Source of the DNA: Desulfobacula sp.
GTDB lineage: Bacteria; Desulfobacterota; Desulfobacteria; Desulfobacterales; Desulfobacteraceae
Reading direction: 5' to 3'
DNA: 32,224 nucleotides
Assembly: GCA_021647625.1 (NCBI GenBank)
Contig: JAKIUJ010000024.1
Location: forward strand, 1 to 32,224
Shown here: positions 4,301 to 29,890 of the stretch, in pieces
How the letters are laid out: each line of letters starts with the position of its first letter
Numbering within the stretch: the stretch's first letter is position 1
Notes under the pieces: generated by a model
The model's input: only the letters and a program-made list of their open reading frames with translations
Told to the model about the DNA's origin: nothing
Database searches by the model: none
Program-made: the position numbers and the translations under genes

Positions 4301-4570
4301 CTGGATTTGGTAAGAGCCGGCTGTAAGGGACAAGAACTACCCATTGAACTGCTATGCAAGGCGTTTAATGCTGAAACTAAAGATGGAAGAAACATGAAGA
4401 AATATTCTGATCTTCTCGGGCAAGCTATTCACTCAATGATCGAAATAAAAGAAGACAAGGATATAGACAGCTTGTTCTCAGGTACGAACACAACTGCCTT
4501 GGTCGATACAATATACGGTCTGGATGATTTTGAATTGATTTCCTTCCTCGTTGTTAAGGAGAACGAATGA
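1301..4570 (+). CDS. SNF2-like superfamily 2 helicase of a restriction-modification island
   Basis: A 1089-aa ATP-dependent DNA translocase or helicase. An N-terminal region of about 250 residues (KIAASCFSIYAFEALKKEL and onwards) resembles the phospholipase-D-like domain often fused to such helicases, but I find no HxK catalytic motif, so it may be inactive. The SF2 core follows: Walker A GLGKT near 279, DESH box near 365, LSATPVNN near 400, then the C-terminal RecA lobe with LIGTDCISEGQNLQ and QRYGRVDRIGS near 825. The segment between lobes is long and partly helical (about 450-680). The stop overlaps the DUF4391 start (ATGA), so the two are translationally coupled. Its position before mod and res suggests it works with the type III enzymes. 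Its DNA target and polarity are unknown. Confidence 0.85.
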   Translation: MQILDNINTLWGNDLKQTLKPGTKLKIAASCFSIYAFEALKKELEKVDSLEFIFTAPAFIPNEVTDKVSKERREFHIPKQERERSLYGSEFEIQLKNKLTQRAIARECADWIKRKARFKSNATKAPMQQFACLNKKDDATAYMPLQGFTAVDLGYQQGDAVSNLITKFEDTPSTQTWLNLFNQIWDDDTKLKDVTDAICSHIESVYQENSPEKIYFLMLYNIFNEFLEDLNEDVLPNDLTGYKNSVIWNKLFNFQRDAATGIINKLESYNGCILADSVGLGKTFTALAVIKYYELRNRSVLVLCPKKLADNWLNYNRNLKTNIFTKDRLNYDVLCHTDLQRTSGESFGTPLNKINWGNYDLVVIDESHNFRNNDTYKDKETRYKKLMNSVIRDGVKTKVLMLSATPVNNRFNDLRNQLALAYEGESENLSSKLKTGKSVEEIFRQAQTVFNSWSKLPPEERTARAILDALDFDFFELLDSVTIARSRKHIETFYDTTDIGKFPVRRKPLSFRCQLTERQDVMGFNDIYTQLSLLKLSVYAPVSYILPSRLKKYEELYDTAVEGSKVTFRQTDREKSLQSLMTTNLLKRLESSVESFRLTLSSLEEKHKGMLSKIEQFKQSGTDLSIHDLANSLGDLEAEDDDLIGLDDFMIGNKIKVSLTDMDLPSWKHDLNSDLVIISSLLDEMKKVGPQEDFKLQHLKKHIEKKIQHPINADNKKIIIFTAFADTANYLYENLSGELLSIGIHSGRVTGKDAPKTTLKKGYDFQSILTLFSPISKEKALILPEEPGEIDLLIGTDCISEGQNLQDCDYLINYDIHWNPVRIIQRYGRVDRIGSTNESIQLVNYWPDISLDEYINLKERVENRMIIADVTATGDDNVLSARANDVSYRKEQLRRLQDEVIELEDLKTGVNITDLGLNDFRMDLLNYIKNNGDLGHLPNGLHAIVSANETIGLKPGVIFTLRNRNSGVNINQHNRLHPYYLIYIGNDGEVITDHTQVKPLLDLVRAGCKGQELPIELLCKAFNAETKDGRNMKKYSDLLGQAIHSMIEIKEDKDIDSLFSGTNTTALVDTIYGLDDFELISFLVVKENE

Positions 4571-5247
4571 AGACCCTTTACAACTTTCCCAAGGCGGCGG
4601 CTTTTGGCCGGAGGCTTGCCAAAAGCAAGATTTACGAACACACTTCGCCAAGTACCAAAGTAAAAAAATTATTTATTCAGCAGGTCGAAAAGATAACCTG
4701 GGCCTATAAACTATCTCCGGCAACTATCAACCTTCCCGCCAGTGATGGAGTGCAGGAAATCCAGGTTTTTACCATAGACTTAAGAGTCGGAGAACTGTCA
4801 CCGGATGTCTTGCAAACCATAGACAAAGCAATCCCCTCACCCATTCTTTTTGAATTGAAGTATGGCAGCAAAACCAAGTATGCTGCCAGCTATAAGAGAC
4901 CGAGTGAGGCAGATAAGAACAAATGGGTTGTCAGCAGTTATTTTCAATCAGACTGGCTGAAAGAGAACACACTAACATCAAAGCTTCCGGTAGTACTAAA
5001 CATGGGAGCACTCTATCAATCCTTTTTAACAAGCTTAAGTCCCCTCCCCTTTAAGAAAGGGGAAAATCTGGATGGTTTAGTATCAAGAATTGACCTTTTA
5101 CAGTTTAAAGAGCGTGAAGCTGGAAAACTGGAGAACCGTATAAACAAAGAAAAACAATTCAACCGGCGCGTGGGGCTGAACAGTACATTGAATAAACTGA
5201 AACAGGAAATTAAGAATTTAAAACGCCGAAAACTGCAGGCGGAATGA
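4567..5247 (+). CDS. DUF4391 domain protein
   Basis: A 226-aa protein without signal peptide or membrane segments. The N-terminal half carries family features: WAYKLSPATINLPA, then EIQVFTIDLR, then IDKAIPSPILFELKYG. A helical, Lys/Arg/Glu-rich tail from about 175 onward (KEREAGKLENRINKEKQF) is predicted to be a coiled coil. DUF4391 proteins have no biochemical function that I know of. They are seen beside large helicases and type III-like methylases. Here the start overlaps the helicase stop by 4 bases and mod follows after 16 bases, which supports a stoichiometric partner of the helicase. The family call is from recalled sequence pattern and is fairly sure; a bridging role is inference. Confidence 0.8.
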   Translation: MKTLYNFPKAAAFGRRLAKSKIYEHTSPSTKVKKLFIQQVEKITWAYKLSPATINLPASDGVQEIQVFTIDLRVGELSPDVLQTIDKAIPSPILFELKYGSKTKYAASYKRPSEADKNKWVVSSYFQSDWLKENTLTSKLPVVLNMGALYQSFLTSLSPLPFKKGENLDGLVSRIDLLQFKEREAGKLENRINKEKQFNRRVGLNSTLNKLKQEIKNLKRRKLQAE

Positions 5248-5263
5248 TACAGGAGTCTTACAA

Positions 5264-7144
5264 ATGGAAAAATTAAAAATGCACAGCCCTAATTTTGCTG
5301 AAGAAAATATCGAGAAGCTTTCAGCACTGTTTCCGGGTTGCATTACAGAATCAACCTATGAAGATGGAACCCTGAAGAAATCTATTGATTTTGATCTGCT
5401 CAGACAGGAACTATCAACCACTATCGTAGAAGGTCCACAGGAGCGCTATCACCTGAATTGGCCAGGCAAGCGAGAAGCTTTACTCACTGCCAATGCACCC
5501 ATCGCTAAGACACTTCGCCCCTGCCGTGAAGAGAGCGAATATTTTGACACAACAGAAAACCTCTTTATTGAGGGTGACAACCTTGATGCACTAAAGCTCC
5601 TGCAGGAAACTTACCTCGGTAAGGTCAAAACGATCTATATCGATCCGCCCTACAACACTGGCAAGGACTTCATCTATTCCGACAATTTTGCTGAATCTAC
5701 TGAGGAATACCTGCTTGATTCAGGCCAAAAAGATGAAGAAGGAAACCGCCTTGTAGCCAACACAGATTCCAATGGCCGCTTCCACTCCGACTGGCTGAGT
5801 ATGATGTATTCACGACTGAAATTAGCCAGAAATCTACTCAAGGATGATGGGGTAATTTTTATCAGTATTGATGATGGAGAACAGGCTAATCTTAAAAGGA
5901 TGTGTGATGAGGTTTTTGGGGAAGAGAATTTTGTCGCTACAATATGCTGGCAAAAACGTTATTCACGTGAAAATCGGGGGTCTATTGGAGATGCACATGA
6001 GTACGTTATAGTATTTGCAAAACAATCCTCTCTGTTTGCAAATCAGTCAGGTAGAATCCCGTTAACAGAACAACAGGCTAAAATTTACAGAAATCCCAAT
6101 AATGATCCTAAAGGTCGATGGCGCGGTATTCCAATGACAGCACAAGGCTATAGGCCTAATCAAATGTATGAAGTTGTTACCCCAACAGGAAATGTTATTA
6201 CGCCGCCTGAAGGCCGTTGTTGGAGTACGATAGAGTCTGAATTTAAAAAATTGAAGGAAGCAGGCAGAATATATTTTGGTAAAGCTAATGATTCTCAGCC
6301 TCAAGTTATTAGGTATCTTTCTGAAGTAAAAGGATTAGTGCCATGGACATGGCTTCCACATGAAGAAGGAGGCCATACTGATGAGTCAAAAAAAGAAATG
6401 TACAGCTTTTTTGGAAAGGGGTTTGCCTTTGACACTCCTAAACCAACTAGATTACTTGAACGACTTATTACAATAGGGTCAAAAGAAAAAGATGGTATCA
6501 TCCTTGATTTCTTTGCGGGATCAGCCACTACAGCCCATGCGGTCATGCGGCTGAACGCTGCCGATGGAGGCAAACGCAAGTTTATAATGGTACAGCTTCC
6601 AGAGACCTGCGATGAGAAATCTGGCGCATATGAAGAAGGATACACAACTATTGCCGAAATCAGCAAGGAGCGTATCCGTCGGGCTGGTAAAAAAATTAAA
6701 GAAGAAAACGCATTGACAGCACCCGACTTGGATACAGGTTTCCGCGTTCTCAAGGTGGACTCCGGTAATATGGAGAACGTCTACTACGCACCCGATTCTG
6801 TTGAGCAAGACCTGCTGACTCTCCAGACCGATAACATCAAAGACGACCGAACTTCAGAAGATTTGCTATTCCAAGTCTTGCTGGACTGGGGTGTAGATCT
6901 AACCCTGCCAATAACCAAAGAAACCATCAAAGATCGTGAAGTTTTCTTTGTAGATGGCAATGCGTTGGCAGCTTGCTTTGCAAAGAATGGCCAAATTACT
7001 GAGAATTTCTGCAAAGAGCTTGCCAAACACCAGCCGTTGCGGGTGGTTTTCCGAGATTCCGGGTTCAAAGATGACAGCATAAAAATCAATGTAGAGCAGA
7101 TATTCAAGCTTATGAGCCCGCACACGGATGTAAAAACAATTTAA
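5264..7144 (+). CDS. Type III-like adenine-specific DNA methyltransferase (Mod)
   Basis: A 626-aa beta-class amino-methyltransferase expected to form N6-methyladenine in an asymmetric site and to supply sequence recognition for Res. The order of motifs is that of type III Mod: ENLFIEGDNLDALKLLQETY, then catalytic DPPYNTG at 127-133, HSDWLSMMYSRL near 170, and the AdoMet-binding DFFAGSATTAHAV near 415. The segment between about 225 and 395 (YSRENRGSIG to LPHEEGG) is the likely target-recognition region. Start ATG 5264 has CAGGAGT upstream. The C-terminal part after 480 would contact Res. All catalytic motifs are intact. The recognition sequence cannot be read from the protein. Confidence 0.92.
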   Translation: MEKLKMHSPNFAEENIEKLSALFPGCITESTYEDGTLKKSIDFDLLRQELSTTIVEGPQERYHLNWPGKREALLTANAPIAKTLRPCREESEYFDTTENLFIEGDNLDALKLLQETYLGKVKTIYIDPPYNTGKDFIYSDNFAESTEEYLLDSGQKDEEGNRLVANTDSNGRFHSDWLSMMYSRLKLARNLLKDDGVIFISIDDGEQANLKRMCDEVFGEENFVATICWQKRYSRENRGSIGDAHEYVIVFAKQSSLFANQSGRIPLTEQQAKIYRNPNNDPKGRWRGIPMTAQGYRPNQMYEVVTPTGNVITPPEGRCWSTIESEFKKLKEAGRIYFGKANDSQPQVIRYLSEVKGLVPWTWLPHEEGGHTDESKKEMYSFFGKGFAFDTPKPTRLLERLITIGSKEKDGIILDFFAGSATTAHAVMRLNAADGGKRKFIMVQLPETCDEKSGAYEEGYTTIAEISKERIRRAGKKIKEENALTAPDLDTGFRVLKVDSGNMENVYYAPDSVEQDLLTLQTDNIKDDRTSEDLLFQVLLDWGVDLTLPITKETIKDREVFFVDGNALAACFAKNGQITENFCKELAKHQPLRVVFRDSGFKDDSIKINVEQIFKLMSPHTDVKTI

Positions 7145-7156
7145 AGGAGGCCTATA

Positions 7157-10100
7157 GTGAAACTCAAGTTTAAGAAACAGGCCTACCAGACACGTGCCGT
7201 TGAGGCGGTGGTGGATTGTTTTAAAGGCCAACCAAATACAGCAGGAATCAGCTATCGAATTGACCCAGGTTTGGATAAGGCCAATTTACAAGGTTATAGG
7301 CAACAAAGTCTTATTGAAGAGTCCGGTTTTAAAAATGGGGATATTGTTTTACCCGAGGAACAGATCCTTGAAAATATTCAAGGGGTTCAGCGTATTCAAA
7401 ATTTACCGCAAAGTTTATCACTGAACGAATTTAAAACGATCAAAAAAAATACTTTTGTGTCAGATAAAAACTACACGAAAAAAGCTTTGGCAATTGCGCC
7501 ATTTCACTTTGATGTGGAAATGGAAACCGGAACTGGAAAGACATACTGCTACATCAAAACAATGTTTGAGATGAACAAACGGTTTGGCTGGACCAAGTTC
7601 ATAGTTGTGGTTCCAAGCATTGCTATTCGTGAAGGTATATACAAATCCCTTGAAATCACGGCAGAGCATTTTCAGGAATCTTACAACAAAAAAGCAAAAT
7701 TTTTCATCTACAACTCAAAACAGCTTCATAACCTCGAAAGCTTTTCTTCAGATGCCGGAATCAATGTCATGGTTATTAATGTTCAGGCATTCAATGCCCG
7801 AGGTAAGGACAACCGCCGCATCTATGAAGAACTCGATGATTTTCAGTCCCGCCGTCCCATCGATGTAATTAAGGCCAATCGACCGATACTAATTTTGGAT
7901 GAACCTCAAAAAATGGAAGGTGCAAAAACATTAGACTCCCTCAAGGAGTTTAATCCTCTGTTTATTCTGCGCTATTCAGCTACACATAAAACCCAGCACA
8001 ATAAGGTTCACAGGCTGGATGCATTAGATGCTTATAGCCAAAAACTTGTAAAAAAAATTGCAGTACGGGGTATCTCCGTAAAGGGTCTTTCAGGGACAAA
8101 CGCATATCTCTATCTTGAATCAGTCGAAGTCTCCAAACAGACTCCTGTTGCCAGAATTGAAATTGAAATAAAACAGAACAATGGTATTAAGCGAATAATC
8201 CGGAAACTAAAAAAAGGTGACAATCTTTACGACCTTTCAGGTGAACTTGATCAATACAAGGGATTTGTCATTACTGACATCAGTGCCATTACGGATACTG
8301 TTGAATTTACAAACGGCCATCAACTACAGGCCGGAGAAGCAACCGGCGATGTTAATGAGGCCGCTCTTAGAAGAATTCAGATAAGAGAGGCTATCAAGGC
8401 TCATTTTGAAAAGGAACAAGTCCTTTATCATCAGGGCATCAAAGTCCTGACACTCTTCTTTATCGATAAAGTCGCCAAATACCGTGTTTACAGCGATGCC
8501 GGAGAAGATGAAGGCGGTGAATATGCCAAAGTATTTGAGGAGGAATATACAGAAGCTTTGAAAGAGCTCAAACAAGACATGTTCCTGCCTGAAGATTACC
8601 AAAAGCATCTGGACAGCATTCCTGTTGACCGTACGCATAATGGCTACTTTTCCATCGATAAGAAGGGAAAAATGGTTGATGCAATCAAGACCACAAAAAG
8701 TGAACGAGAAGAAAGCACCGATCAAAGTGCCTATGACTTAATTTTGAAAGACAAAGAACGTCTACTCTCATTTGAGGAACCAATCCGGTTTATTTTCTCC
8801 CATTCTGCTCTCCGTGAAGGATGGGACAACCCGAATGTTTTTGTTATTTGTACCTTAAAGCACAGTGACAATACTATCTCCCGCAGGCAAGAGGTCGGTC
8901 GAGGGCTTCGTATATCGGTCAATCAGTTGGGTGAACGCCAAGATGAACCAGCCACAGTTCATCAAACAAACGTTTTAACGGTTGTTGCCAGCGAAAGCTA
9001 TAAGGACTTCGTCACGGCTTTGCAGAAAGACATCAGTGAGTCGCTCTCAGAACGGCCACGGGTGGCCGATGTAAAATATTTTACTGGAAAAGTAATGCAG
9101 ACTTCTTCCGGTACGGTTGAAGTGACACAGGACATGGCAGCGGGCATCGAGTTTTATCTAATTCAGAACGGATATGTTGATCGCAAGAAAAACATTGCCC
9201 AGAAATATCATGATGCAGTGAAGAATGAAGAAATAGCTGATTTGCCAGAGGATTTGCAGCCATACAAAGAGCAAGTTTTTCAATTAATAGAAAGCGTTTA
9301 CAGCGATGAAAAACTTCCTCAAATTGAAAATGATCGCAGCGCTAAGATGAATCCGTTAAATGCCAACTTTGAAAAAAAGGAATTTAAGGAGCTTTGGAAT
9401 AGGATTAATCGCAAAGCAGCCTATAGCGTACATTTTGACAGCGCTGAACTTGTTAAAAAATCCATCCAGACTCTGAACAAAGAATTGCGGGTTTCTCCCC
9501 TTAAATACACAATTCAGTCGGGTGAGCAAGCTGATGGAATAAATTATGACCAGATGAAATCGGGTGACAGCTTCAAAGTAAAGAAAACCTCTACCGAATA
9601 TGATGCTCACTCGATCCATTCAGCGGTAAAATACGACTTAATTGCTAAAGTTGCTGAGAATGTGCAATTGACAAGAAAAACCGTCACCGAAATTTTATCG
9701 GGTATTGAAAAGTCAGTATTTGCTCAGTTTAAAACCAACCCGGAAAATTTCATTTCCGAAGCTACACGGCTCATTCAGGAACAAAAAGCGACTGTTATTA
9801 TTGAACACCTGAGTTATGATGCTGTTACCGAGACGCATGGTATCGATATTTTTACCGAAAGCCAAAGCAAACAGGATTTCAGCAAAGCCGGTGAGTCACT
9901 CAAACGCCATATTTATGATTATGTTATAACTGACTCGAAAACGGAACGAACCTTTGTCCAGGAGCTTGATACCAGCTCTGAAGTGGTAGTTTATGCAAAG
10001 CTCCCCAGAGGTTTCTCAATCCCCACACCAGTTGGCAACTACAATCCAGACTGGGCAATCTCTTTCAAGGAAGGTTCAGTAAAGCACGTATACTTTGTCG

Positions 10101-10282
10101 CTGAAACTAAAGGTTCCATGTCCACCATGGAGCTCCGGGAGATTGAAAAGACAAAAATAGAATGCGCCCGTAAATTTTTCAATGAAATCAACCGCAAGAT
10201 TAACCCAGACAATGTGAAATACGACGTAGTTAACAGTTTCAGTAAATTGATGGATATCGTTGGAGCAGGAGCTACAGCCTAA
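7157..10282 (+). CDS. Type III restriction endonuclease subunit (Res), helicase-nuclease
   Basis: A 1041-aa ATP-dependent restriction subunit. SF2 motifs: METGTGKT at 122-129, LDEPQKM near 249 (the DEPQ variant of motif II is typical of type III Res), LRYSATH near 272, and [13 protein letters not shown] with [12 protein letters not shown] near 555-590. At the C-terminus a PD-(D/E)xK nuclease is visible: NPDWAISF near 963 and VAETKG near 982, which would cut DNA after translocation or diffusion between sites. Start is GTG 7157 with a perfect AAAGGAGG; the first A of that SD falls within the mod stop codon. No frameshift is seen, so the enzyme should be active with Mod. Confidence 0.92.
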
Positions 10283-15086: not shown

Positions 15087-15973
15087 ATGAGCAGACTGAG
15101 ACTTGGGTATCCCAAATTTAACAGGTTAATATTGTATATTGTTAAGGTGGACAATAAAATATTTGTTTCAAGGCATGGAATCAATATTTCCTGCCTGGTT
15201 CTTCTCCTGGTGCTTGTCTTTGTAACGGGCGGATGCATTCAAAGCCAGGCAGACCCCATAGCCCAGGACGGCCATCTGGATCTATCCGGGTGGGACTTTA
15301 GTCAAAAAGGCCCTGTGGAACTGAAAGGAAAGTGGGAATTTTATTGGGAAAAATTGCTCCTGCCAAAAAATTTTTCCATTGACACCGATTGGAAGAAAAC
15401 CAACTATATTCAAGTGCCGGGGCTCTGGAAAAAAAACGCTTCAACCACGGGGCCGCTGCCGGCACAGGTCTCGGTCTTGCCATTTCAAAGGAGTTGGTGG
15501 GCCTGCCACGGCGGTAAAATCGGGGTTTCCTCCAGAAACGGACGGGGCTCTGTTTTCTGGTTCACCCTGCCCCTGGATTCTTCGAAAATGGATGTTTTGA
15601 CAAAGACAGACACCTCCCCGGCTAATATACCTGTTTTTACCGGCCCGGATGAATTTTTGCCTCCTTTAAAAATGAAAAGTAACGGACCAACATGCGATAG
15701 TGCCTGCATCCTGGCTGTGGATGATGATCCAGTCAATCTTGAGGTGGTGGTCAACCACCTGGACTGTTTTAATGTCCTGACCTGTATCAGCGGACAGCAG
15801 GCCCTTGATCGGATTGAAAAAGCCCCCTGCCGGATCTCATCTTGCTGGATATCATGATGCCGGGACTGTCGGGGTATGATGTCTGCCGTAAAATCCGGGA
15901 AACTTATTCTCCTTCCCGGCTGCCAGTGATCCTGCTTGGGTGTGGGGTTTGCTTGCTGGTTCCTATTCTTTGA
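15087..15973 (+). pseudogene. Collapsed hybrid histidine kinase (7TMR-DISM type)
   Basis: The pieces of a long sensor kinase are squeezed into under 900 bases. The N-terminal part has a membrane or lipoprotein-like signal (LVLVFVTGGC) and DGHLDLSGWDF ... GKWEFYWEKLL, typical of 7TMR-DISM extracellular domains. It then jumps to the end of a HATPase domain: one frame reads GTGLGLAISKELVG, and one base later another reads HGGKIGVSS and GRGSVFWFTLPL. A receiver domain follows (ILAVDDDPVNLEVV); a second shift near 15825 moves PDLILLDIMMPGLSGYDVCRKIRE to another frame. The transmembrane, PAS and HisKA parts are deleted. At least one large deletion and two frameshifts make it non-functional. Confidence 0.85.
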
Positions 15974-18309: not shown

Positions 18310-18445
18310 ATTTGGACGAAAAGTTGCCCATATGCAAGGCGCAAGAAATCCTGAAACCGGAGTGTACTGCTGTACATGAGGATTTCAGGATTTTGCAGCA
18401 ACGAAGCAGATGGGCGCTGCCGACGGGTGGGTTTTCGCTCAAACA
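18310..18445 (-). repeat. Dispersed palindromic repeat, copy 2
   Basis: Read on the minus strand it starts TGTTTGAGCGAAAAC directly after the TAG stop of the GGR-like gene and ends TATGGGCAACTTTTCG. The centre is a stem AAATCCTGAAA / TTTCAGGATTT around the conserved CCTCATGTAC-N4-GTACACTCCGG core. It has about 12 extra bases in the first arm compared with copy 3. It fills most of the gap between the GGR-like gene and the glnK regulatory region. Confidence 0.85.
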
Positions 18446-21862: not shown

Positions 21863-22172
21863 TTTTCAGCTTATGCCTTTTTTAAAAAAAAAGTTAATAT
21901 TGATGAGAATATATACATCATCTTAAGCAAGCGCAATATCTAAGAAACATTCTTGCCCGCTTAATAATATTTCAATTAGGCAATATTGCACAAGTCTCAC
22001 CGCCATAATCAGGAATAATTTCAATCTAAAAATATAGAATTTGTTTCCTAAATTGAACCTTTTTATAAAAATTTTTTAAATTCTGACAATAAAAGTTGAC
22101 AAACAGTAAACTTATATTCTATTGCTCTTTCAGGCTGATCTATACTGTAACATCTTTTTTTAGGATATGGAT
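21863..22172. other. Divergent promoter region, AT-rich, no gene
   Basis: This 310-base gap separates the leftward TPR gene from the rightward hydroxyacid operon. It is very AT-rich. The one candidate promoter for the operon is listed separately. I see no ORF, RNA gene or clear operator. Confidence 0.5.
22096..22123 (+). promoter_or_regulatory. Candidate sigma-70 promoter of the hydroxyacid operon
   Basis: A perfect -35 TTGACA (22096-22101) is followed after 16 bases by TCTATT, a 4-of-6 match to the -10 box. Transcription would start near 22130, about 43 bases before the first gene. The -35 is strong and the -10 is only fair. Confidence 0.45.
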
Positions 22173-23546
22173 ATGCTGGATGAGAACATAAAGAATCAAC
22201 TCTTAACAATCATAAATCCTGAACGATATCTCGACCAACCAGAAGCACTTGCCTGCTATGCCTATGATGCCTTTGTCGAAGAAAGCCTTCCGGATGCTGT
22301 TATTTTTCCAAAAACAACCAATGAAGTCTCGGGTATTCTAAAAATTGCATCCCAATTTAAAGTGCCTGTCACGGCCCGGGGTGCCGGCACCAGTGTTTGT
22401 GGTGCACCTATCCCGGTAAAACACGGCATTATTGTGTGCTTTTCCAAAATGGATACCATACTTGATGTGAATACTCGCGATCGGTACATTATCGTTCAAC
22501 CGGGTGTTGTGAATGCAGACATTCAAAAAGCCCTTGCGCCTTTTGGATTCTTTTATCCACCTGATCCGGGTTCAATGAACACTGCCACCATTGGCGGGAA
22601 CATAGCCCAGAATGCCGGGGGCCCACGGTGTTTGAAATACGGGGTAACAGTAGATTATGTCCTTGGCTTGGAAGTTGTCCTGGCATCGGGTAAAATTATC
22701 CGATTCGGCAGTAAAAATGTGAAAGATGTCACCGGCTATAAACTGACCTCCCTTTTTTGCGGCTCGGAAGGAACTCTTGGCATTGTTACCGAAGCCATAT
22801 TAAAAGTACGCCCCCTGCCTGAAACTACCAAAACATTAATGGTCATGTTTGATGATCTTGATAACACAGCCAGGGCTGTCACCGATATTATCGGCTCGGG
22901 TATTTTACCGGCAGCCATGGAATTGATGGATCAAATGACCTTGACTGCCATTGAAGATGCCGCCAATCTAGGATTGGACAAAACCGCCCAGGGATCATTG
23001 CTCATTGAACTCGACGGTGTAGAAGAAGCCTGTGAAAAAGAGATGAAACAGATCATTGAAAAAGTAAAAGAAAATGGCGCCACCCACATTCAGGAAGCCA
23101 ACTCGGAAAGTCAACGCCAGAATATCTGGACAGCCCGGCGTGCGGCCTATGGTATTTTTGCCAAATTAGCGCCGGATATCATGTCTGAAGATGTCACCGT
23201 ACCTGTGAGCAAGGTTCCGGCTATGATTCGAAAAATTGTCGCGATAGCCCATAAGTATCGCCTCAAGGTGGGTGTACTGGCCCATGCCGGAGATGGCAAT
23301 ATGCACCCAATGATTCCGACAAATAAGGCAGACAGGGATGAATGGCACAGGGTAAAAAAAGCGTTTGACGAAATTTTTGAGGCAGCAGCCCAGCTTGACG
23401 GCACCTTGTCCGGGGAACATGGCATAGGACTTGCCAAATCTAAGTATCTCCCCCTGGTCATGAACCAGGACACCATTGACTTTATGAAAATCATTAAAAA
23501 AGCGGTTGATCCTGACAATATCTTAAATCCAGGGAAATTTGCATGA
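22173..23546 (+). CDS. FAD-linked 2-hydroxyacid dehydrogenase (GlcD / D-lactate dehydrogenase type)
   Basis: A 457-aa flavoprotein of the FAD_binding_4 / FAD-oxidase C family, expected to oxidise a D-2-hydroxy acid such as D-lactate or glycolate to the 2-oxo acid. FAD-domain motifs: VTARGAGTSVCGAPIPVKHG, PPDPGSMNTATIGGNIAQNA, and GGPRCLKYGVTVDYVLGLE. The C-terminal lid has GVLAHAGDGNMHPM with metal or substrate His and LSGEHGIGLAKSKYL. ATG 22173 is preferred over 22167 because AGGA at 22162 is 7 bases from it. The stop overlaps the iron-sulfur partner start. Electrons would pass through that partner to quinone or another carrier. Confidence 0.92.
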   Translation: MLDENIKNQLLTIINPERYLDQPEALACYAYDAFVEESLPDAVIFPKTTNEVSGILKIASQFKVPVTARGAGTSVCGAPIPVKHGIIVCFSKMDTILDVNTRDRYIIVQPGVVNADIQKALAPFGFFYPPDPGSMNTATIGGNIAQNAGGPRCLKYGVTVDYVLGLEVVLASGKIIRFGSKNVKDVTGYKLTSLFCGSEGTLGIVTEAILKVRPLPETTKTLMVMFDDLDNTARAVTDIIGSGILPAAMELMDQMTLTAIEDAANLGLDKTAQGSLLIELDGVEEACEKEMKQIIEKVKENGATHIQEANSESQRQNIWTARRAAYGIFAKLAPDIMSEDVTVPVSKVPAMIRKIVAIAHKYRLKVGVLAHAGDGNMHPMIPTNKADRDEWHRVKKAFDEIFEAAAQLDGTLSGEHGIGLAKSKYLPLVMNQDTIDFMKIIKKAVDPDNILNPGKFA

Positions 23547-24856
23547 CCCCAAAAGTGCCCCCAAATTGTGGAAAGTGCGGTTTATGTCTCAATGTCTGCC
23601 CGGTCTACAAGCAGATGAAAGAAGAGCAGGCATCTCCACGGGCCCGCATGCAGTTAATACGGGCGCATAAGAATCAAACCATTGCGTCTTCTCCATATCT
23701 GAAAGAAATCATGTCAAAATGTTTGATGTGTGGTTCGTGTACTGCCAACTGCCCGTCAGGCATTGATCATTACTCAGCTTTCATGAAAATGAGAGAACAG
23801 ATGGCCGAGGATCACGGAGAGCCCGCGGCCGTTAAAAGCCTGATCTATCTTTTGGCCCGGGACTATCGCACAAGATGGGGGTCTACCCTTGCCCGGACCG
23901 GACAGAAGCTTTTACCGAAAAAAATTGCCGAATCATACAAACTTGGCAACATTGCCTTAAAAAACATGCCCCGACTCAATGCGGTTCCGTTCCGAAACAC
24001 CTGTGAAGAGATTATTCTTCCAGATACCCAAAAACCAGACAGACAAAAACCGGATACCCCGAAAACAGATACAAAGTGGCAAAACATTCAAAGACAAGGG
24101 TCTGATAAAGAGACCGGGACCGTTGCCTATTTCACCGGTTGTGCCACAAACTATATATATGATGACGTAGGTTTGGCCACCGTTGGTATCTTAAAAAGAA
24201 TGGGGTATAAAATCATTATCCCAAAAAATCAAACCTGCTGTTCCATTCCTTTATTATTTCATGGTGCAAAAAAACAGGCACAAAAAAACATTGAAACCAA
24301 TATCGAGGCATTAAAGGGTCTCAAGGTTGATGCCATTCTTGTGGATTGTTCCACCTGTGGAGAAGCACTCAAACATATCTATCCTTCTTTTTTTAATAAA
24401 AACGACCCGGCATCGCACCATGCAATTGCAATTGCCCAAAAGATTGGAGATGTTTTGTCTTTTATTGATGATCATTTTGACCGACTTACATTTAATGCAT
24501 CACCAAAAGAAAAACCCGTTGTCACCTATCATGCACCGTGTCATTCAAAAAACAGCTTCCAATCCCATACCACGATTGAAAATTTAATTAAGAAACTGCC
24601 GTTTGTCATCTATAAAAAAACCTGTGATACAGAAGAATGCTGTGGTGGTGGCGGAACTTTTTTTTATGAATTTCCAAAAGTCTCTAAAGAAATGACAGAC
24701 AAAAAAATTAATAATGCAAAAGCAATTCATGCAACACAATGGCTGACCGATTGCCCGGTATGCAGAATGAATCTTTCAGGCAATCTCAAAAAAGAGGACA
24801 ACCTGATTATCAAGCATCCTTTATCCCTAATTTATTCGGCATTAAAACCCCTATGA
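23543..24856 (+). CDS. (Fe-S)-binding oxidoreductase subunit (GlcF/LutA/GlpC type)
   Basis: A 437-aa electron-transfer partner of the flavoprotein. Two [4Fe-4S] motifs near the N-terminus: CGKCGLCLNVCPVYK (residues 9-23) and CLMCGSCTANCPSG (near 60-75). Two CCG-type cysteine-rich domains follow: TGCATNYIYDD ... CCSIPLLFHGA and HAPCHSKNSF ... EECCGGGGTFF, then CPVCRMNLSG. The CCG repeats bind a further cluster in relatives such as heterodisulfide reductase B and succinate dehydrogenase E. A Pro/Asp/Lys linker around 155-175 (PDTQKPDRQKPDTPK) is low-complexity. It overlaps the genes on both sides by 4 bases (ATGA), so the three subunits are translated together. Confidence 0.92.
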   Translation: MTPKVPPNCGKCGLCLNVCPVYKQMKEEQASPRARMQLIRAHKNQTIASSPYLKEIMSKCLMCGSCTANCPSGIDHYSAFMKMREQMAEDHGEPAAVKSLIYLLARDYRTRWGSTLARTGQKLLPKKIAESYKLGNIALKNMPRLNAVPFRNTCEEIILPDTQKPDRQKPDTPKTDTKWQNIQRQGSDKETGTVAYFTGCATNYIYDDVGLATVGILKRMGYKIIIPKNQTCCSIPLLFHGAKKQAQKNIETNIEALKGLKVDAILVDCSTCGEALKHIYPSFFNKNDPASHHAIAIAQKIGDVLSFIDDHFDRLTFNASPKEKPVVTYHAPCHSKNSFQSHTTIENLIKKLPFVIYKKTCDTEECCGGGGTFFYEFPKVSKEMTDKKINNAKAIHATQWLTDCPVCRMNLSGNLKKEDNLIIKHPLSLIYSALKPL

Positions 24857-26124
24857 AAATCGAATTCAATAAAGGCCGGACCGTTCTTAACCTTGACATA
24901 CCGGATGAAAAAATTCTGGATATCCTTGTCGGGAAAGATATACCGGGCCTGGGACTTAGAAAAATCAGCCGTATCATTGAAAATGGTATAAATAATCATT
25001 CACCTAAAGACATCTCAAACAAAAAAACAGCCATTATTATCCCGGATGATACCCGGCTCTGGGCCCGGGGAGATATTTTTGTCCCGCAAATTGTAAAATC
25101 ATTGATGACGCTCGGGGTCCCAAAAGATAATATCACCATTATTATTGCGCTGGGTACACATAGTGACATGGACAAAGACACCCTGCCAAAACTTGCAGGA
25201 AGCTTTTGTGCCGAAAATATTAAAATTCTTAATTCAGCAAACAAAGATACCCGTCGCCTGAGCTTTATCGGTGACACCCGTAAAAAAACAGCGTTGACCA
25301 TTACCAAAGAGGCTGCCGAGGCTGATCACATCATAATATTTGGTGGTGTTCTTCATCACATGCTTGCCGGATTTGGTGGTGGACGCAAATATATTCTACC
25401 CGGTATTGCCGGGTATGATGCCATCCAGCAAAACCATTTATTGGCCATCCAAAAGGATGGGTCCCCCCATCCGCTGGTTCGCCAGGGCATATTGCTCCAA
25501 AATCCGGTTAACGAAGATATGGAAGATGCTGCACACCTGTTTTTAAAAAATAAGACCTGTTCATATGTTGCCATTGCCGCCAATGGTACTGGTGATATTT
25601 TCCATGCAGATGTAGGAGATCTTGACACAACCTTTATTAGCGCCTGCAGCAAACTTACCCAGGCCTGCTGTATATCTGTTTTTCAAAAGTCAGATTTTGC
25701 CATAATTTCCACAGGCGGGCATAGAGCAGATACCCAATTGTACCAATCCACAAAAGCCTTGTTCAATGCAATTAATGTTGTAAAACAAGGAGGGGACATC
25801 CTCTTTATTGCAGGGTGCTCAAAAGGTGCAGGGAATGATCAGTTTGCCGATACACTAACTAATTTTAAGCATGATCCTGGAAAAACAGGCAAAAATCTGG
25901 TCAAAAAGTTTAATATGCCCATTTACGTTGCGCTCAGGGTCATGGATATTTTAAAGCGTTTCAATGTAACCCTGTATTCTGATTTTTCACAGCAAGACAC
26001 TTTGGATCTGGGGTTTTGTTTTACTCATGACATTGATCACACGATTAAAAGTTTATCCGGCAAAGGCTTTATTATCCCGTTTGCTGAAAACATTTTGCCG
26101 GTTTTAACAGAACCAATAACTTAA
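24853..26124 (+). CDS. larA: LarA-family nickel-dependent 2-hydroxyacid racemase
   Basis: A 423-aa LarA homologue. The residues that hold the nickel-pincer cofactor and do catalysis in the Lactiplantibacillus plantarum enzyme (His108, His174, Lys184, His200) appear at His103 (GTH), His169 (LHHMLAGFGGGRK), Lys179 and His195 (QQNH), with identical spacing. The phosphate-binding DDTR motif is at 65-68. So it should be an active racemase or epimerase of a 2-hydroxy acid. LarB, LarC and LarE, which make the cofactor, are not in the window. The ORF track starts 38 codons early, inside the Fe-S gene; ATG 24853 overlaps its stop. In this operon it would convert the L-enantiomer to the D-form used by the GlcD-type enzyme. 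Confidence 0.9.
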   Translation: MKIEFNKGRTVLNLDIPDEKILDILVGKDIPGLGLRKISRIIENGINNHSPKDISNKKTAIIIPDDTRLWARGDIFVPQIVKSLMTLGVPKDNITIIIALGTHSDMDKDTLPKLAGSFCAENIKILNSANKDTRRLSFIGDTRKKTALTITKEAAEADHIIIFGGVLHHMLAGFGGGRKYILPGIAGYDAIQQNHLLAIQKDGSPHPLVRQGILLQNPVNEDMEDAAHLFLKNKTCSYVAIAANGTGDIFHADVGDLDTTFISACSKLTQACCISVFQKSDFAIISTGGHRADTQLYQSTKALFNAINVVKQGGDILFIAGCSKGAGNDQFADTLTNFKHDPGKTGKNLVKKFNMPIYVALRVMDILKRFNVTLYSDFSQQDTLDLGFCFTHDIDHTIKSLSGKGFIIPFAENILPVLTEPIT

Positions 26125-26139
26125 CTTTAAGGAGGAATC

Positions 26140-27225
26140 ATGGAAAGACGGACATTTTTAAAAACTGCAGGTATTACAACCGCAACTGCAGCCGCATCTC
26201 TATCGATCGGCGCTCCAGCAGTCATTGCCTCGAACAAAAAAATCCGGTGGCAGGCCACAAGCTTCTGGAATCCAAAAGTCAAGATCATGTTCGATGGAAT
26301 AAAAGAGTTTTGTGAAAATGTAAAAGTCATGTCCGATGGTCAGCTTGATATCAAGCTGTACGGCGGCGGAGAGCTTGTTCCCCCGTTTGGTGCCTTTGAT
26401 GCCGTGTCCAATGGTACTGTTCAGATGGGTACGGGATCGCCCTATTTCTGGGCGGGTAAATCTACAGCCTTTAACTGGTTTGGTTCCATTCCATTTGGTA
26501 TGAATGCACAAAGCATCAATGCCTGGTTTTATCAGGGCAACGGGATGAATTTAATGACCGAGCTATATGATCAATTTAATCTTGTTCCAAGAATTATCGG
26601 CAACTCAGGTATGCAGATGGGTGGCTGGTATAGAAAAAAAATAAATTCTCTGGAAGATTTCAAAGGGTTAAAAATGAGAATCGGCTCCATTGCCGGTAAA
26701 GTGCTTTCAAAAGTAGGCGTGACAACTGTTATGGTGCCGCCTGCGGAAATCTTCCCATCCCTTGAAAGAGGTGTGGTGGATGCCGCCGAATTTGTAGGCC
26801 CCGTGCATGATATCCTGTTAGGACTCTACAAAGTTGCCAAATATTATTACACACCAGGCTGGCATGAGCCCGGACCAGTTCTGGACATTTTTTTTAATAA
26901 AGAAGCCTACACAAAACTTCCGGTTCACCTGCAGAAAATCCTTGATATTGCAGCGGCTGATATTAATGTCAAAACACTTGCCAAATTTGATGCCCAAAGT
27001 GCCATAGCATTGAACACACTGGTTAAAGATCATGGCGTTGATGTACAGATCTACCCGGATGATATAATAAAAAAACTAAAAACGATTTCAAAAGAAGTGG
27101 TTGAAGAAGAGGCCAAAAAAGATCCGTTTGCCCAAAAGGTTCATGATGACTATAAGACGTTCCAGGCCAATACGGCAATCTGGGGTAATATGAGTGAAAA
27201 AGTTTATTGGAACACAATGGCATAG
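26140..27225 (+). CDS. dctP: TRAP transporter substrate-binding protein (DctP, TakP-like)
   Basis: A 361-aa periplasmic receptor. The N-terminus MERRTFLKTAGITTATAAAS has a Tat twin-Arg motif and a cleavage region GAPAVIAS, so it is exported folded. The mature protein looks like the TakP branch, whose members bind 2-oxo acids or lactate with a metal ion: IRWQATSFWNPK, MGTGSPYFWAGKS, SGMQMGGWYRKKINSLEDFKGL, KMRIGSIAGKVL (ligand-carboxylate Arg) and VVDAAEFVGPVHD. SD AAGGAGG precedes ATG, 15 bases after larA. With the dehydrogenase and racemase upstream, a 2-hydroxy monocarboxylate such as lactate is the probable ligand. The family is clear; the ligand is inferred. Confidence 0.92.
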   Translation: MERRTFLKTAGITTATAAASLSIGAPAVIASNKKIRWQATSFWNPKVKIMFDGIKEFCENVKVMSDGQLDIKLYGGGELVPPFGAFDAVSNGTVQMGTGSPYFWAGKSTAFNWFGSIPFGMNAQSINAWFYQGNGMNLMTELYDQFNLVPRIIGNSGMQMGGWYRKKINSLEDFKGLKMRIGSIAGKVLSKVGVTTVMVPPAEIFPSLERGVVDAAEFVGPVHDILLGLYKVAKYYYTPGWHEPGPVLDIFFNKEAYTKLPVHLQKILDIAAADINVKTLAKFDAQSAIALNTLVKDHGVDVQIYPDDIIKKLKTISKEVVEEEAKKDPFAQKVHDDYKTFQANTAIWGNMSEKVYWNTMA

Positions 27226-27230
27226 GGCTT

Positions 27231-27776
27231 ATGGAAACTATAAAAAAAGCCATTTCAACCTGTGATAAAGTCAATGAATGGGTGGGCAGCGTTGTTGTTA
27301 CAAGTGCTGTCTTCCTGTTCATTGGTATTATTTTTTCCAATGTGGTTTTGCGGTATGTATTTAATACCAGTTTTGTTTTCATGGCTGAATTGGAATGGCA
27401 TGTATTTGCTTTCATTTTTTTAATGGGCGCAGGGTTTACCCTGCTGCACGACGGTCATGTCCGGGTGGATATTTTCTATTCCATGATGAATCAAAAAAAA
27501 CAGGCATGGATCAATTTATTCGGCGTATTGTTCTTTTTGATCCCCTCCTGCTATCTGGTTTTAACCACGAGCATTCCCTGGGTGATTGATGCGTATAAGG
27601 TGGGTGAAATATCCATTGATCCCGGTGGAATTCCTGCCCGATTCGTAATTAAAGCCACGGTACCGGCAGGCTATCTTCTCATGCTGATCCAGGGGCTTGT
27701 TTTATTGTTTAAAAGTGCCTTTGTCATTATAGGAAACCCCATTAAAGATATACCGGCAACAAAACCACAAGATTAA
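27231..27776 (+). CDS. dctQ: TRAP transporter small membrane subunit (DctQ)
   Basis: A 181-aa protein with four membrane helices, the size and topology of DctQ. Helix 1 is VVVTSAVFLFIGIIFSNVVL, followed by the family segment TSFVFMAELEWHVFAFIFLMG (Glu-rich entry to helix 2), LLHDGHVRVDIFY between helices 2 and 3, and GYLLMLIQGLVLLF as helix 4. The ORF track starts inside dctP; I take ATG 27231, five bases after its stop. DctQ and DctM together form the sodium-driven transport unit. Confidence 0.9.
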   Translation: METIKKAISTCDKVNEWVGSVVVTSAVFLFIGIIFSNVVLRYVFNTSFVFMAELEWHVFAFIFLMGAGFTLLHDGHVRVDIFYSMMNQKKQAWINLFGVLFFLIPSCYLVLTTSIPWVIDAYKVGEISIDPGGIPARFVIKATVPAGYLLMLIQGLVLLFKSAFVIIGNPIKDIPATKPQD

Positions 27777-27826
27777 CTTTAAAATGATGCTTTATCCCCA
27801 TAGCGGGGTTTACACTGGAAAACAAT

Positions 27827-29170
27827 ATGCTGATTGAATTTTTACCATTCTGGTTTGCTAACTATCTGGCGGCCTGGTTGTTTTTAGCACTGACCATTGC
27901 TTTGATGATGGGATTCCCCGTCACATTTACCATGATGGGGACATCCTTTCTTTTTGGTTTGATCGGGTTAAACCCCTCTTTTTTTGACCTGCTGCCGCTT
28001 CGCATGTGGGGCATCATGAACAACACCATGCTCATGGCGGTTCCTTTATTTATCTTTATGGGGCTTGCCCTGGAAAGATCCGGGCTTGCCAAAGAACTTT
28101 TGGAAACAATGGAAGAGTTGTTTCGCAATATCAGGGGCGGACTTGCTATCTCTGTTGTTCTCGTGGGCGCATTATTAGGTGCGTCCACCGGCATTGTCGG
28201 AGCAACCGTGGTCACCATGGGACTTATGTCCCTGCCCACCATGCTCAAGCATAACTATTCAAAATCATTTGCTGCAGGAACGGTGGCGGCTTCGGGTACG
28301 CTGGGTCAAATCATACCGCCCAGTATTGTTCTTTTGCTTTTGGGACCGGTCATGGAAGTTCCCGTAGGTGATATGTTCATGGGCGCTGTCATTCCGGGAC
28401 TGATCCTTGTGGTGCTTTATTGCCTGTACATCTATTTTTCCAGCTTTTTTAGCACCAAACATATACCAAGAGCCCAGGATAAGGGTGCTACCTTTGACAA
28501 AGCCTTTATCTTAAAAATATTTAAAGCACTTATCCCGCCGCTATTTCTAATCCTGGCTGTCCTGGGATCTATTTTTGCCGGTATTGCCACCCCCACTGAG
28601 TCCGGTTCCATGGGGGCTGTGGGGGCGATTATTTTAACAGCCTTTAATAAAAAACTTTCTTTCAAGCTGCTCCATGAAGTGGCAAAAGGCACCATAAAGA
28701 TGACCTGCATGGTCTTTATCATCATTATGGGAGCCTCTTGTTTTGCTCTTGTTTTCAGAGGGCTTGGCGGAGATGATTTGCTGCGTGAATTTATAACAAG
28801 CCTCAATTTGACCGGGTGGCAGCTGGTAACCATGGTTATGATCTTTATTTTTATTTTGGGATTTTTCCTGGATTTTATTGAAATCACTTATATTCATATC
28901 CCCATCATTGCCCCCATTGTTGTGGAATATGGATATGATCCTTTATGGTTTGGGATCATGTTTGCCGTTAATCTGCAGACATCATTTATGACACCACCGT
29001 TTGGGCCTTCTTTATTTTATCTTAAAGGCGTTTGTCCGCCCGAAGTAAAAACCACCCATCTGTACCGGGGGATTATCCCATTTGTAATTTTACAGATCAT
29101 AGGATTAATGATTATTGCTGCCTGGCCGAGCCTTGTTACCTGGCTTCCCGGCATTGTTTACGGTAACTAG
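27827..29170 (+). CDS. dctM: TRAP transporter large membrane subunit (DctM)
   Basis: A 447-aa inner-membrane transporter with 12 or more helices. Landmarks of DctM: ALMMGFPVTFTMMGTSFLFG, LGASTGIVGATVVTMGLMSL, GTLGQIIPPSIVLLLLGPVM, ATPTESGSMGAVGAIIL and LQTSFMTPPFGPSLFYLKG. It imports the DctP-bound acid using a sodium gradient. The 50 bases before it hold a small CCCC/GGGG hairpin (27796-27808) and only a weak ribosome site, which could set the Q:M ratio. Its TAG stop is directly followed by the terminal TGTTTG of repeat copy 3. Confidence 0.95.
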   Translation: MLIEFLPFWFANYLAAWLFLALTIALMMGFPVTFTMMGTSFLFGLIGLNPSFFDLLPLRMWGIMNNTMLMAVPLFIFMGLALERSGLAKELLETMEELFRNIRGGLAISVVLVGALLGASTGIVGATVVTMGLMSLPTMLKHNYSKSFAAGTVAASGTLGQIIPPSIVLLLLGPVMEVPVGDMFMGAVIPGLILVVLYCLYIYFSSFFSTKHIPRAQDKGATFDKAFILKIFKALIPPLFLILAVLGSIFAGIATPTESGSMGAVGAIILTAFNKKLSFKLLHEVAKGTIKMTCMVFIIIMGASCFALVFRGLGGDDLLREFITSLNLTGWQLVTMVMIFIFILGFFLDFIEITYIHIPIIAPIVVEYGYDPLWFGIMFAVNLQTSFMTPPFGPSLFYLKGVCPPEVKTTHLYRGIIPFVILQIIGLMIIAAWPSLVTWLPGIVYGN

Positions 29171-29294
29171 TGTTTGAACGAAAACTCACCCATCTGCGGC
29201 GTTGCTGTGGAACTCTGAAATCCTCATGTACCGCAGTACACTCCGGTTTCAGAGTTCCTTGTGTCTTGCATATGGGCAACTTTTCGCCCAAACA
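29171..29294 (+). repeat. Dispersed palindromic repeat, copy 3
   Basis: A 124-bp element running from TGTTTGAACGAAAACTCACC to CAACTTTTCGCCCAAACA. Outer arms are imperfect inverted repeats. The inner stem GGAACTCTGAAA / TTTCAGAGTTCC is perfect over 12 bp. It encloses a conserved mismatched block (TCCTCAT against ACTCCGG) and GTAC-CGCA-GTAC at the tip. It begins directly after the dctM TAG and ends 23 bases before the regulator start, so it could act as operon terminator or attenuator. Confidence 0.88.
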
Positions 29295-29317
29295 AAGATT
29301 TTCATGATGAGGCCCAT

Positions 29318-29890
29318 ATGGATGAAAAGCTAATTTGCCAAAATATTAAAAAACTTCGAAAACAAAACCACTTGACCCTTGAAAAACTTGCATTCAAAAC
29401 AGGGCTGACAAAGGGATACTTATCAAAGGTAGAGCGTTCCCAAAAAGCACCGCCCTATTCCACGTTAAACAAAATTGCCGGTGCATTAGGGATTGAAGTG
29501 ACCCAGATTTTTGAGAAAAACATTGAACCCCTGGATGATATAAAAATCAGCTTTCATAAAGCAAATTCACTAAACATCATCAAGGCCACCTCGCAATTTT
29601 CCGGATATGATTATCAGGTGCTTGCCCCGGATAAACCCGGCAAAAACATGGAACCCTTTATTATCTATTCTCCAGACGAGATTACCAAAATGTATTCCCA
29701 TGAGGGAGAAGAATTCATGTATGTCATGGATGGAACCCTTGAATTTATATATGGAAAAGAGACCTATATATTAGAAAAAGGAGACCATGTTTATTTTGAT
29801 TCCTGTATTCCCCATGCCGGGAAAAGCCTTGGGGAAAAAAAAGCAACCTTGATGGTGGTCATCTATTTTTATAAAAGGAATCGAAGATAA
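29318..29890 (+). CDS. XRE-family regulator with C-terminal cupin
   Basis: A 190-aa transcription factor. The HTH_3 domain at about 5-60 reads IKKLRKQNHLTLEKLAFKTG and LTKGYLSKVERSQKAPPYST. A cupin_2 domain follows: MYSHEGEEFMYVMDGTLEF and LEKGDHVYFDSCIPHAG hold the putative metal or ligand His/Glu residues. Such XRE-cupin proteins often sense a metabolite of the operon they adjoin. ATG 29318 has GAGG before it; the ORF track start at 29261 lies in the repeat and is rejected. Placement after the TRAP operon suggests it regulates hydroxyacid uptake. It converges with the PAS gene, 6 bases away. Confidence 0.88.
   Translation: MDEKLICQNIKKLRKQNHLTLEKLAFKTGLTKGYLSKVERSQKAPPYSTLNKIAGALGIEVTQIFEKNIEPLDDIKISFHKANSLNIIKATSQFSGYDYQVLAPDKPGKNMEPFIIYSPDEITKMYSHEGEEFMYVMDGTLEFIYGKETYILEKGDHVYFDSCIPHAGKSLGEKKATLMVVIYFYKRNRR

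What the first reader, a model, noticed from the sequence alone, without database searches (positions are those of the whole stretch)
22173..29890. Self-contained hydroxyacid module: TRAP uptake, LarA racemase, D-specific dehydrogenase and cupin regulator
Three catabolic genes overlap by ATGA at each junction and are followed at once by all TRAP subunits and an XRE-cupin regulator. LarA keeps all four cofactor/catalytic residues at the exact spacing of the lactate racemase, and DctP belongs to the branch binding lactate or 2-oxo acids. Together they predict use of both enantiomers of one acid through a single D-dehydrogenase. The true substrate could be lactate or a larger 2-hydroxy acid, since many LarA homologues act on other substrates.
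Basis: partly seen in the sequence, partly recalled or inferred. Interest (0 to 1): 0.52.

Follow-up and report, generated by a model that had tools for sequence, protein, structure and literature searches.

The report
Self-regulated 2-hydroxy-acid uptake and racemase module
A marine sulfate-reducing bacterium (Desulfobacula) carries a compact gene set that appears to import a small organic acid, convert its mirror-image form with a nickel enzyme and burn it; the genes are real and conserved, but sequence evidence suggests the acid is probably not plain lactate, and which acid it is remains to be measured.

Summary
Window 22173-29890 (Desulfobacula sp., draft genome) holds a GlcD-type FAD dehydrogenase, its CCG Fe-S subunit and a LarA homologue joined by two ATGA overlaps, then DctP-DctQ-DctM and an XRE-cupin regulator. 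LarA keeps every NPN/catalytic residue at lactate-racemase spacing. It is not in the lactate-racemase group: best NCBIfam model is LarAH10, below every cut-off, and the positions equivalent to LarA1 F175/F176/W358/T359 are M/L/Y/V, the pattern described for hydrophobic 2-hydroxyacid racemases. It belongs to a well-supported, uncharacterised clade. The core (GlcD-FeS-LarA, usually XRE-cupin) is conserved while the TRAP transporter is swapped between two unrelated cassettes (14 vs 14 loci). A 17-bp near-palindrome on the promoter -35 box travels with the promoter in both layouts and occurs once in the 4.27-Mb genome: a candidate dedicated operator. The same genome has a separate canonical L- plus D-lactate locus without larA, and TakP-type DctP has a near-invariant cation/2-oxo-acid pocket, so I favour a C4-C6 aliphatic (or other hydrophobic) 2-hydroxy acid over lactate (about 0.6 vs 0.25). 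larC and larE are present; larB is missing here but present in 24/26 relatives, so probably an assembly gap.

The parts
22095..22111 (+). Candidate operator GTTGACAAACAGTAAAC (near palindrome GTTGAC-N5-GTAAAC) overlapping a sigma-70-like -35 box TTGACA (22096-22101)
   Evidence: Phylogenetic footprint in both operon layouts; only match of GTTGACAANNNGNAAAC in the genome, reversed control 0; 1 match in the window allowing 1 mismatch, 0.05 expected. Binding itself is inferred.
22173..23546 (+). GlcD-type FAD-linked D-2-hydroxyacid dehydrogenase
   Evidence: PF01565+PF02913; TIGR00387 glcD 519 bits, below its 568 cut-off; closest solved: 9qgz glycolate oxidase, LctD 7qh2, LDHD 8jdc
23543..24856 (+). 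Fe-S (CCG, GlcF/LutA-like) electron-transfer subunit of the dehydrogenase
   Evidence: PF13183 plus two PF02754 stretches; ATGA overlap with the upstream gene
24853..26124 (+). LarA homologue (nickel-pincer 2-hydroxyacid racemase), uncharacterised clade with hydrophobic pocket residues M170, L171, Y358, V359
   Evidence: PF09861+PF21113; NCBIfam order LarAH10 > MAR > LarA, none over cut-off; residues; tree; AlphaFold pLDDT 92, TM 0.83-0.88 to lactate-racemase structures
26140..27225 (+). DctP, TakP-type TRAP solute receptor with Tat-like signal peptide
   Evidence: PF03480; best solved relatives 4yzz, 4pet, 5cm6, 2hzk (TakP), 7ug8; Q159, R180, E217, F218, E243 match the TakP cation/2-oxo-acid site; 17 pocket positions identical in 14 of 15 orthologous copies
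27231..27776 (+). DctQ small TRAP permease
   Evidence: PF04290
27827..29170 (+). DctM large TRAP permease
   Evidence: PF06808; TIGR00786 over cut-off
29185..29300 (+). Dispersed palindromic repeat inserted between dctM and the regulator (not part of the mechanism)
   Evidence: At least 40 copies, the others at 84-91% identity, in the genome; inverted arms 29209-29231/29236-29258; orthologous gaps checked are about 30-91 bp without it
29318..29890 (+). XRE-cupin transcriptional regulator, predicted ligand-sensing regulator of the module
   Evidence: HTH_3 + Cupin_2; directly follows LarA or DctM in nearly all loci whichever TRAP is present

Best explanation
A dedicated operon for taking up and oxidising both enantiomers of a hydrophobic 2-hydroxy monocarboxylate, most likely a linear C4-C6 aliphatic acid such as 2-hydroxybutyrate or 2-hydroxyvalerate, possibly an amino-acid-derived one. 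DctPQM imports the acid (DctP binds carboxylate and 2-OH through a cation and R180). The NPN-loaded LarA homologue interconverts L and D forms by proton-coupled hydride transfer. GlcD with its Fe-S partner oxidises the D form to the 2-oxo acid and passes electrons on (presumably to menaquinone). The XRE-cupin senses the acid or its 2-oxo product and controls one promoter through GTTGAC-N5-GTAAAC. Shown by sequence: gene set, residues, conservation, transporter exchange, unique motif. Inferred: substrate, direction of flux, electron acceptor, regulator-operator pairing.
For: LarA: complete catalytic set, non-lactate specificity positions across the clade, pattern matched to the HHR rule of PMC11770544. 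Carboxylate-binding R, H, H, Q, K set of PMC11851776 conserved. No K at the malate position, no gluconate or 2-hydroxyglutarate pattern. DctP is TakP-like; TakP prefers longer linear 2-oxo acids and does not bind 2-oxoglutarate (PMC1839085; residues). Separate canonical lactate locus C329: LdhH, LUD protein, TRAP, GlcD, FeS, FCD/GntR regulator. Spirochaetia orthologue (54% id) sits with a 2-hydroxyisocaproyl-CoA-dehydratase-like subunit, an activator-type ATPase, a class III CoA-transferase, an acyl-CoA dehydrogenase, a PP-loop (LarE-like) protein and LarC. Alternative TRAP cassette's DctP is nearest to the pantoate/erythronate SBP group (PMC11668362). Conserved motif, once in the genome.
Against: The HHR residue rule is weak: its authors say HHR specificity differences are not apparent from structural models. 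TakP itself binds pyruvate, and the structural branch includes lactate-binding TTHA0766. In Desulfopila (L093) LarA-DctPQM lies convergent to LutCBA, an L-lactate oxidation complex. DctP has F103 where TakP has Y100. A Desulfosporosinus 'lactate racemase' is reported as induced by lactate plus sulfate (PMC6372793); a LarAH of that MAG (L127) has HHR-like residues, and I could not tell whether it is the same gene. No biochemical data.
Confidence: 0.6

Rival explanations
1. It is a second lactate module: lactate imported by DctPQM, L-lactate racemised to D-lactate, and D-lactate oxidised by GlcD-FeS.
For: GlcD relatives include LctD and mitochondrial D-lactate dehydrogenase; DctP branch includes lactate/pyruvate receptors; Desulfopila LarA-TRAP next to LutCBA; lactate is a very common 2-hydroxy acid in sediments (own knowledge).
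Against: Not a LarA (lactate) member by model score or the four specificity positions; a complete L- and D-lactate locus without larA exists in the genome and LdhH/LutB-type genes in about 19 of 22 genomes with the module (my reading of LdhH/LutB-type versus CCG-only matches), making a racemase redundant; the C329 DctP has a different pocket.
Confidence: 0.25
2. The substrate is a polar 2-hydroxy acid (pantoate, erythronate, 2,3-dihydroxyisovalerate, glycerate) handled by the same layout.
For: The alternative DctP is nearest to the pantoate/erythronate group; LarAH10 epimerised gluconate unexpectedly (PMC11770544).
Against: Pocket positions are hydrophobic in LarA and mostly hydrophobic in DctP; the alternative DctP is only distantly related to those receptors.
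Confidence: 0.1
3. DctPQM mainly imports 2-oxo acids, and LarA-GlcD-FeS deal with a 2-hydroxy acid made inside the cell; the clustering reflects shared regulation, not one linear pathway.
For: TakP binds 2-oxo acids with high affinity; the TRAP cassette is exchangeable while the core is not.
Against: Two unrelated TRAP cassettes, and SSS symporters in Spirochaetia and Synergistetes, are each placed in the same cluster, which fits import of the pathway substrate.
Confidence: 0.05

Closest known systems
LarAH10/52/66 hydrophobic 2-hydroxyacid racemases (HHR; Megasphaera elsdenii Plr and relatives; PMC11770544)
   Same: LarA fold, NPN set, aromatic F/Y at the LarA1 W358 position, hydrophobic neighbours; best NCBIfam score
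   Different: 279 bits against a 540 cut-off; separate well-supported clade, 27% identity to the genus's own LarAH10-model member (L071); no member assayed as far as I know
Lactate racemase LarA (Lactiplantibacillus plantarum LarA1, EC 5.1.2.1)
   Same: R75/H108/H174/K184/H200 set at identical spacing; same fold
   Different: F175, F176, W358, T359 replaced by M, L, Y, V; about 24% identity in the structural alignment; 189 bits against a 460 cut-off
TakP TRAP receptor (Rhodobacter sphaeroides, PDB 2HZK; PMC1839085)
   Same: Q156, R177, E214, E240 site conserved; hydrophobic cavity; alignment end to end
   Different: Y100 is F103, W215 is F218 (main-chain ligand only), W43 and M50 in the cavity
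Desulfovibrio lactate operon DVU3025-3033 (dld-II, lldGH; PMC6456213)
   Same: Two-gene D-lactate dehydrogenase (DVU3027-3028) in a sulfate reducer
   Different: No LarA reported, permease instead of TRAP, other regulators; in this genome its counterpart is the separate C329 locus

Membership tests
LarA / NPN-dependent racemase superfamily | Lar_N and LarA_C domains with LarA fold | tested here: met
   PF09861 1e-45, PF21113 5e-10; Foldseek TM 0.83-0.88 to lactate-racemase structures
LarA / NPN-dependent racemase superfamily | NPN-binding and catalytic residues R75, H108, H174, K184, H200 at LarA1 spacing | tested here: met
   R68, H103, H169, K179, H195, kept in intact clade members
LarA / NPN-dependent racemase superfamily | Cofactor synthesis genes larB, larC, larE in the genome | tested here: inconclusive
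   larC and larE found; larB not found in this 93%-complete draft but over cut-off in 24/26 relatives
Lactate racemase (LAR group) | NCBIfam NF033504 above cut-off (460 bits) | tested here: not met
   189 bits
Lactate racemase (LAR group) | F, F, W, E/Q(T) at LarA1 positions 175, 176, 358, 359 | tested here: not met
   M, L, Y, V
Malate racemase (LarAH5/LarAH6) | H/Q and K at positions 358/359 | tested here: not met
   Y, V; 241 and 201 bits against 500 and 462
Hydrophobic 2-hydroxyacid racemase (HHR, LarAH10 model) | NF052525 above cut-off (540 bits) | tested here: not met
   278.8 bits; three orthologues 284-312
Hydrophobic 2-hydroxyacid racemase (HHR, LarAH10 model) | F/Y at position 358 with hydrophobic pocket | tested here: met
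   Y358 in every clade member covering the position, followed by V/I
Hydrophobic 2-hydroxyacid racemase (HHR, LarAH10 model) | Racemisation of hydrophobic 2-hydroxy acids | not testable with these tools
   Needs enzyme assay
TakP-type TRAP solute receptor | Cation and 2-oxo-acid site Q156, R177, E214, E240 (TakP) | tested here: met
   Q159, R180, E217, E243, identical in all 15 orthologous copies
TakP-type TRAP solute receptor | Tyr100 hydrogen bond to the carboxylate | tested here: not met
   F103 in 14 of 15 orthologous copies, Y in L109

The most novel reading that the evidence does not exclude
The clade is a new NPN-racemase specificity group (sulfate reducers, with relatives in Spirochaetia, Synergistetes and an Asgard archaeon) for a 2-hydroxy acid not yet known as a main LarA substrate, embedded in a transporter-exchangeable regulon with a single-copy XRE-cupin operator.
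Probability: 0.35. Interest if true: 0.55.

Novelty: new variant of a known kind. Interest (0 to 1): 0.42.

Why it matters
Lactate racemase annotations are spread by homology over a superfamily whose members act on many acids. Here gene context, residue positions, transporter type and a second lactate locus together argue that one such annotation would be wrong, and they give a tractable, self-contained system for finding the real acid. If confirmed, it shows how sediment sulfate reducers use both enantiomers of 2-hydroxy acids released by fermenters, and it provides a regulator-operator pair and two unrelated receptors that should recognise the same ligand, a strong internal test of substrate.

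Tried and rejected
L003 (C183) matched Lar_N weakly but reads as a DUF362-type ferredoxin protein, not LarA. AIRC/LarB hits in the genome are PurE fused to PurD. The paper with SBP ligand assignments (bi501388y) was not held, so ligands of 4yzz, 4pet and 5cm6 are not used as evidence. The Had/Fld comparison in L101 cannot separate lactoyl-CoA from 2-hydroxyisocaproyl-CoA dehydratase, since few such structures are solved. Branched-chain-type (Liv) ABC transporters beside LarAH10-type clusters in Desulfosporosinus concern a different clade and are only suggestive. Long branches (L069, L138, L106) make deep positions in the tree uncertain. Some reverse-strand ORFs in the ortholog maps are shadows of altDctP, corrected by tblastn.

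Full report
What is there. The window is the whole contig C268 of a 4.27-Mb draft genome (92.9% complete, 3.4% contamination); the nearest named loci carry the name Desulfobacula. Between a TPR gene and a PAS-domain gene, both on the minus strand, lie seven plus-strand genes: a GlcD-type FAD dehydrogenase, a CCG Fe-S protein, a LarA homologue, DctP, DctQ, DctM and an XRE-cupin regulator. The two ATGA junctions are real, and spacing is otherwise operon-like. The only large gap, 147 bp before the regulator, contains a dispersed palindromic repeat with at least 40 copies in the genome; the four orthologous gaps I checked are about 30-91 bp.

Conservation shows it is a unit. A LarA search over 390 genomes of the order found about 30 relatives at 53-70% identity. 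In 28 of 29 Desulfobacterales loci where the upstream side of LarA is on the contig, GlcD-FeS directly precede it. Two unrelated TRAP cassettes alternate: the TakP-type DctPQM downstream of LarA (14 loci besides the window) or a different DctPQM upstream of GlcD (14 loci), by my tally. The XRE-cupin follows LarA or DctM in nearly all complete loci of either layout. In Desulfosarcinaceae (L065/L100) the two-gene dehydrogenase is replaced by a fused GlcD-CCG protein of 977 aa lying upstream, while LarA-DctPQM-XRE and the motif persist.

A candidate operator. Upstream regions of the first gene do not align except for one block, GTTGACAAA(T/C)AGTAAAC, containing TTGACA. It moves with the promoter: in front of GlcD when the TRAP is downstream, in front of the alternative DctP when it is upstream. 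The pattern GTTGACAANNNGNAAAC occurs once in the genome, at 22095-22111, and its reversed control not at all. In L050 and L051, where no XRE-cupin was found, the block is degenerate; L044 (no XRE-cupin found, one mismatch) and L053 (no XRE-cupin found, intact motif) do not fit as neatly. That the XRE-cupin binds it is inference.

The racemase. Catalytic and cofactor residues match LarA1 in identity and spacing, and the AlphaFold model (pLDDT 92) superposes on lactate-racemase structures with TM 0.83-0.88. By group it is not a lactate racemase: NCBIfam scores rank LarAH10 (279) above malate racemase (241, 201) and LarA (189), all below cut-off. Positions equivalent to F175, F176, W358, T359 are M, L, Y, V here and M/L/V/I, A/T/L/I, Y, V/I over the clade, matching the hydrophobic 2-hydroxyacid racemase description and not the lactate, malate, 2-hydroxyglutarate or gluconate patterns (PMC11770544). 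The clade of 32 sequences in the tree is supported 100/99 and extends to Synergistetes, an Asgard archaeon (Borrarchaeum), Spirochaetia and Desulfopila.

The transporter. DctP aligns end to end with TakP; Q159, R180, E217, F218 and E243 match the cation/2-oxo-acid site, with F103 in place of Y100 (with PMC1839085). Seventeen pocket positions are identical in 14 of 15 orthologous copies (L109 has Y instead of F103) and several differ in the DctP of the genome's lactate locus. TakP binds longer linear 2-oxo acids better than pyruvate and does not bind 2-oxoglutarate. The alternative cassette's DctP is nearest to receptors some of which were solved with pantoate or erythronate.

Why lactate is not favoured. 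Contig C329 of the same genome holds LdhH (1026 bits, over cut-off), a LUD protein, a TRAP transporter, another GlcD with Fe-S partner and an FCD/GntR regulator, and no LarA in the stretch read. This resembles the known L- plus D-lactate arrangement (compare DVU3025-3033, PMC6456213). All 22 tested genomes with the module have some match to the LdhH model; counting only LdhH/LutB-type matches, about 19 do. A lactate racemase would be redundant there. Independent context: the Spirochaetia orthologue sits among genes like those of 2-hydroxyisocaproyl-CoA dehydration. Against this, the Desulfopila orthologue lies beside LutCBA, so lactate is not excluded.

Cofactor supply. larC (C145) and larE (C203) are present; larB is not found but is over cut-off in 24 of 26 relatives. 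A gap in the draft is the simplest reading.

Known versus new. Neighbouring COG0277/COG0247 genes were noted for several LarAH groups before (PMC7583248), so the general kind is known. New here, as far as I could check, are the clade, its residue signature, the exchange of TRAP cassettes around a fixed core, and the single-copy motif. The substrate remains a prediction.

Noticed in passing
window 29185-29300 (+) and 18311-18414 (-): Dispersed palindromic repeat (arms of about 22 nt, 4-nt loop) with at least 40 copies in the genome; one copy sits inside this operon between dctM and the regulator.
   Followed up: partly
L069 (G000:C59) 2723-6380: Second LarA homologue of the genome, Y/F/H/K at the specificity positions (malate-racemase-like, 382 bits, cut-off 500), preceded by another GlcD and an HdrA2-like Fe-S protein.
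   Followed up: partly
L101 3398-17316: Spirochaetia cluster: 2-hydroxyacyl-CoA dehydratase subunit, activator-type ATPase, AMP ligase, class III CoA-transferase, SSS symporter, LarA, unknown 378-aa protein, FMN reductase, acyl-CoA dehydrogenase, PP-loop (LarE-like) protein, LarC: apparently a reductive 2-hydroxy-acid pathway using a racemase.
   Followed up: partly
L127 2642-11278: Desulfosporosinus SbF1: Liv-type ABC transporter genes, GlcD, FeS and a LarAH10-like racemase in one run; the published lactate racemase annotation of this MAG may deserve rechecking.
   Followed up: partly
L071 9536-17413: A third LarA type in the genus (over the LarAH10 cut-off, 610 bits), followed by genes whose sizes resemble an oligopeptide-type ABC transporter (not confirmed by family search).
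   Followed up: no
window 1301-10282: Run of four genes that read like helicase, small protein, DNA methyltransferase and type III restriction-like helicase, probably a restriction or defence island.
   Followed up: no
window 15087-15857: 256-aa ORF that reads like an N-terminal sensor region fused directly to a kinase C-terminus and a truncated receiver; looks like an internally deleted sensor kinase.
   Followed up: no
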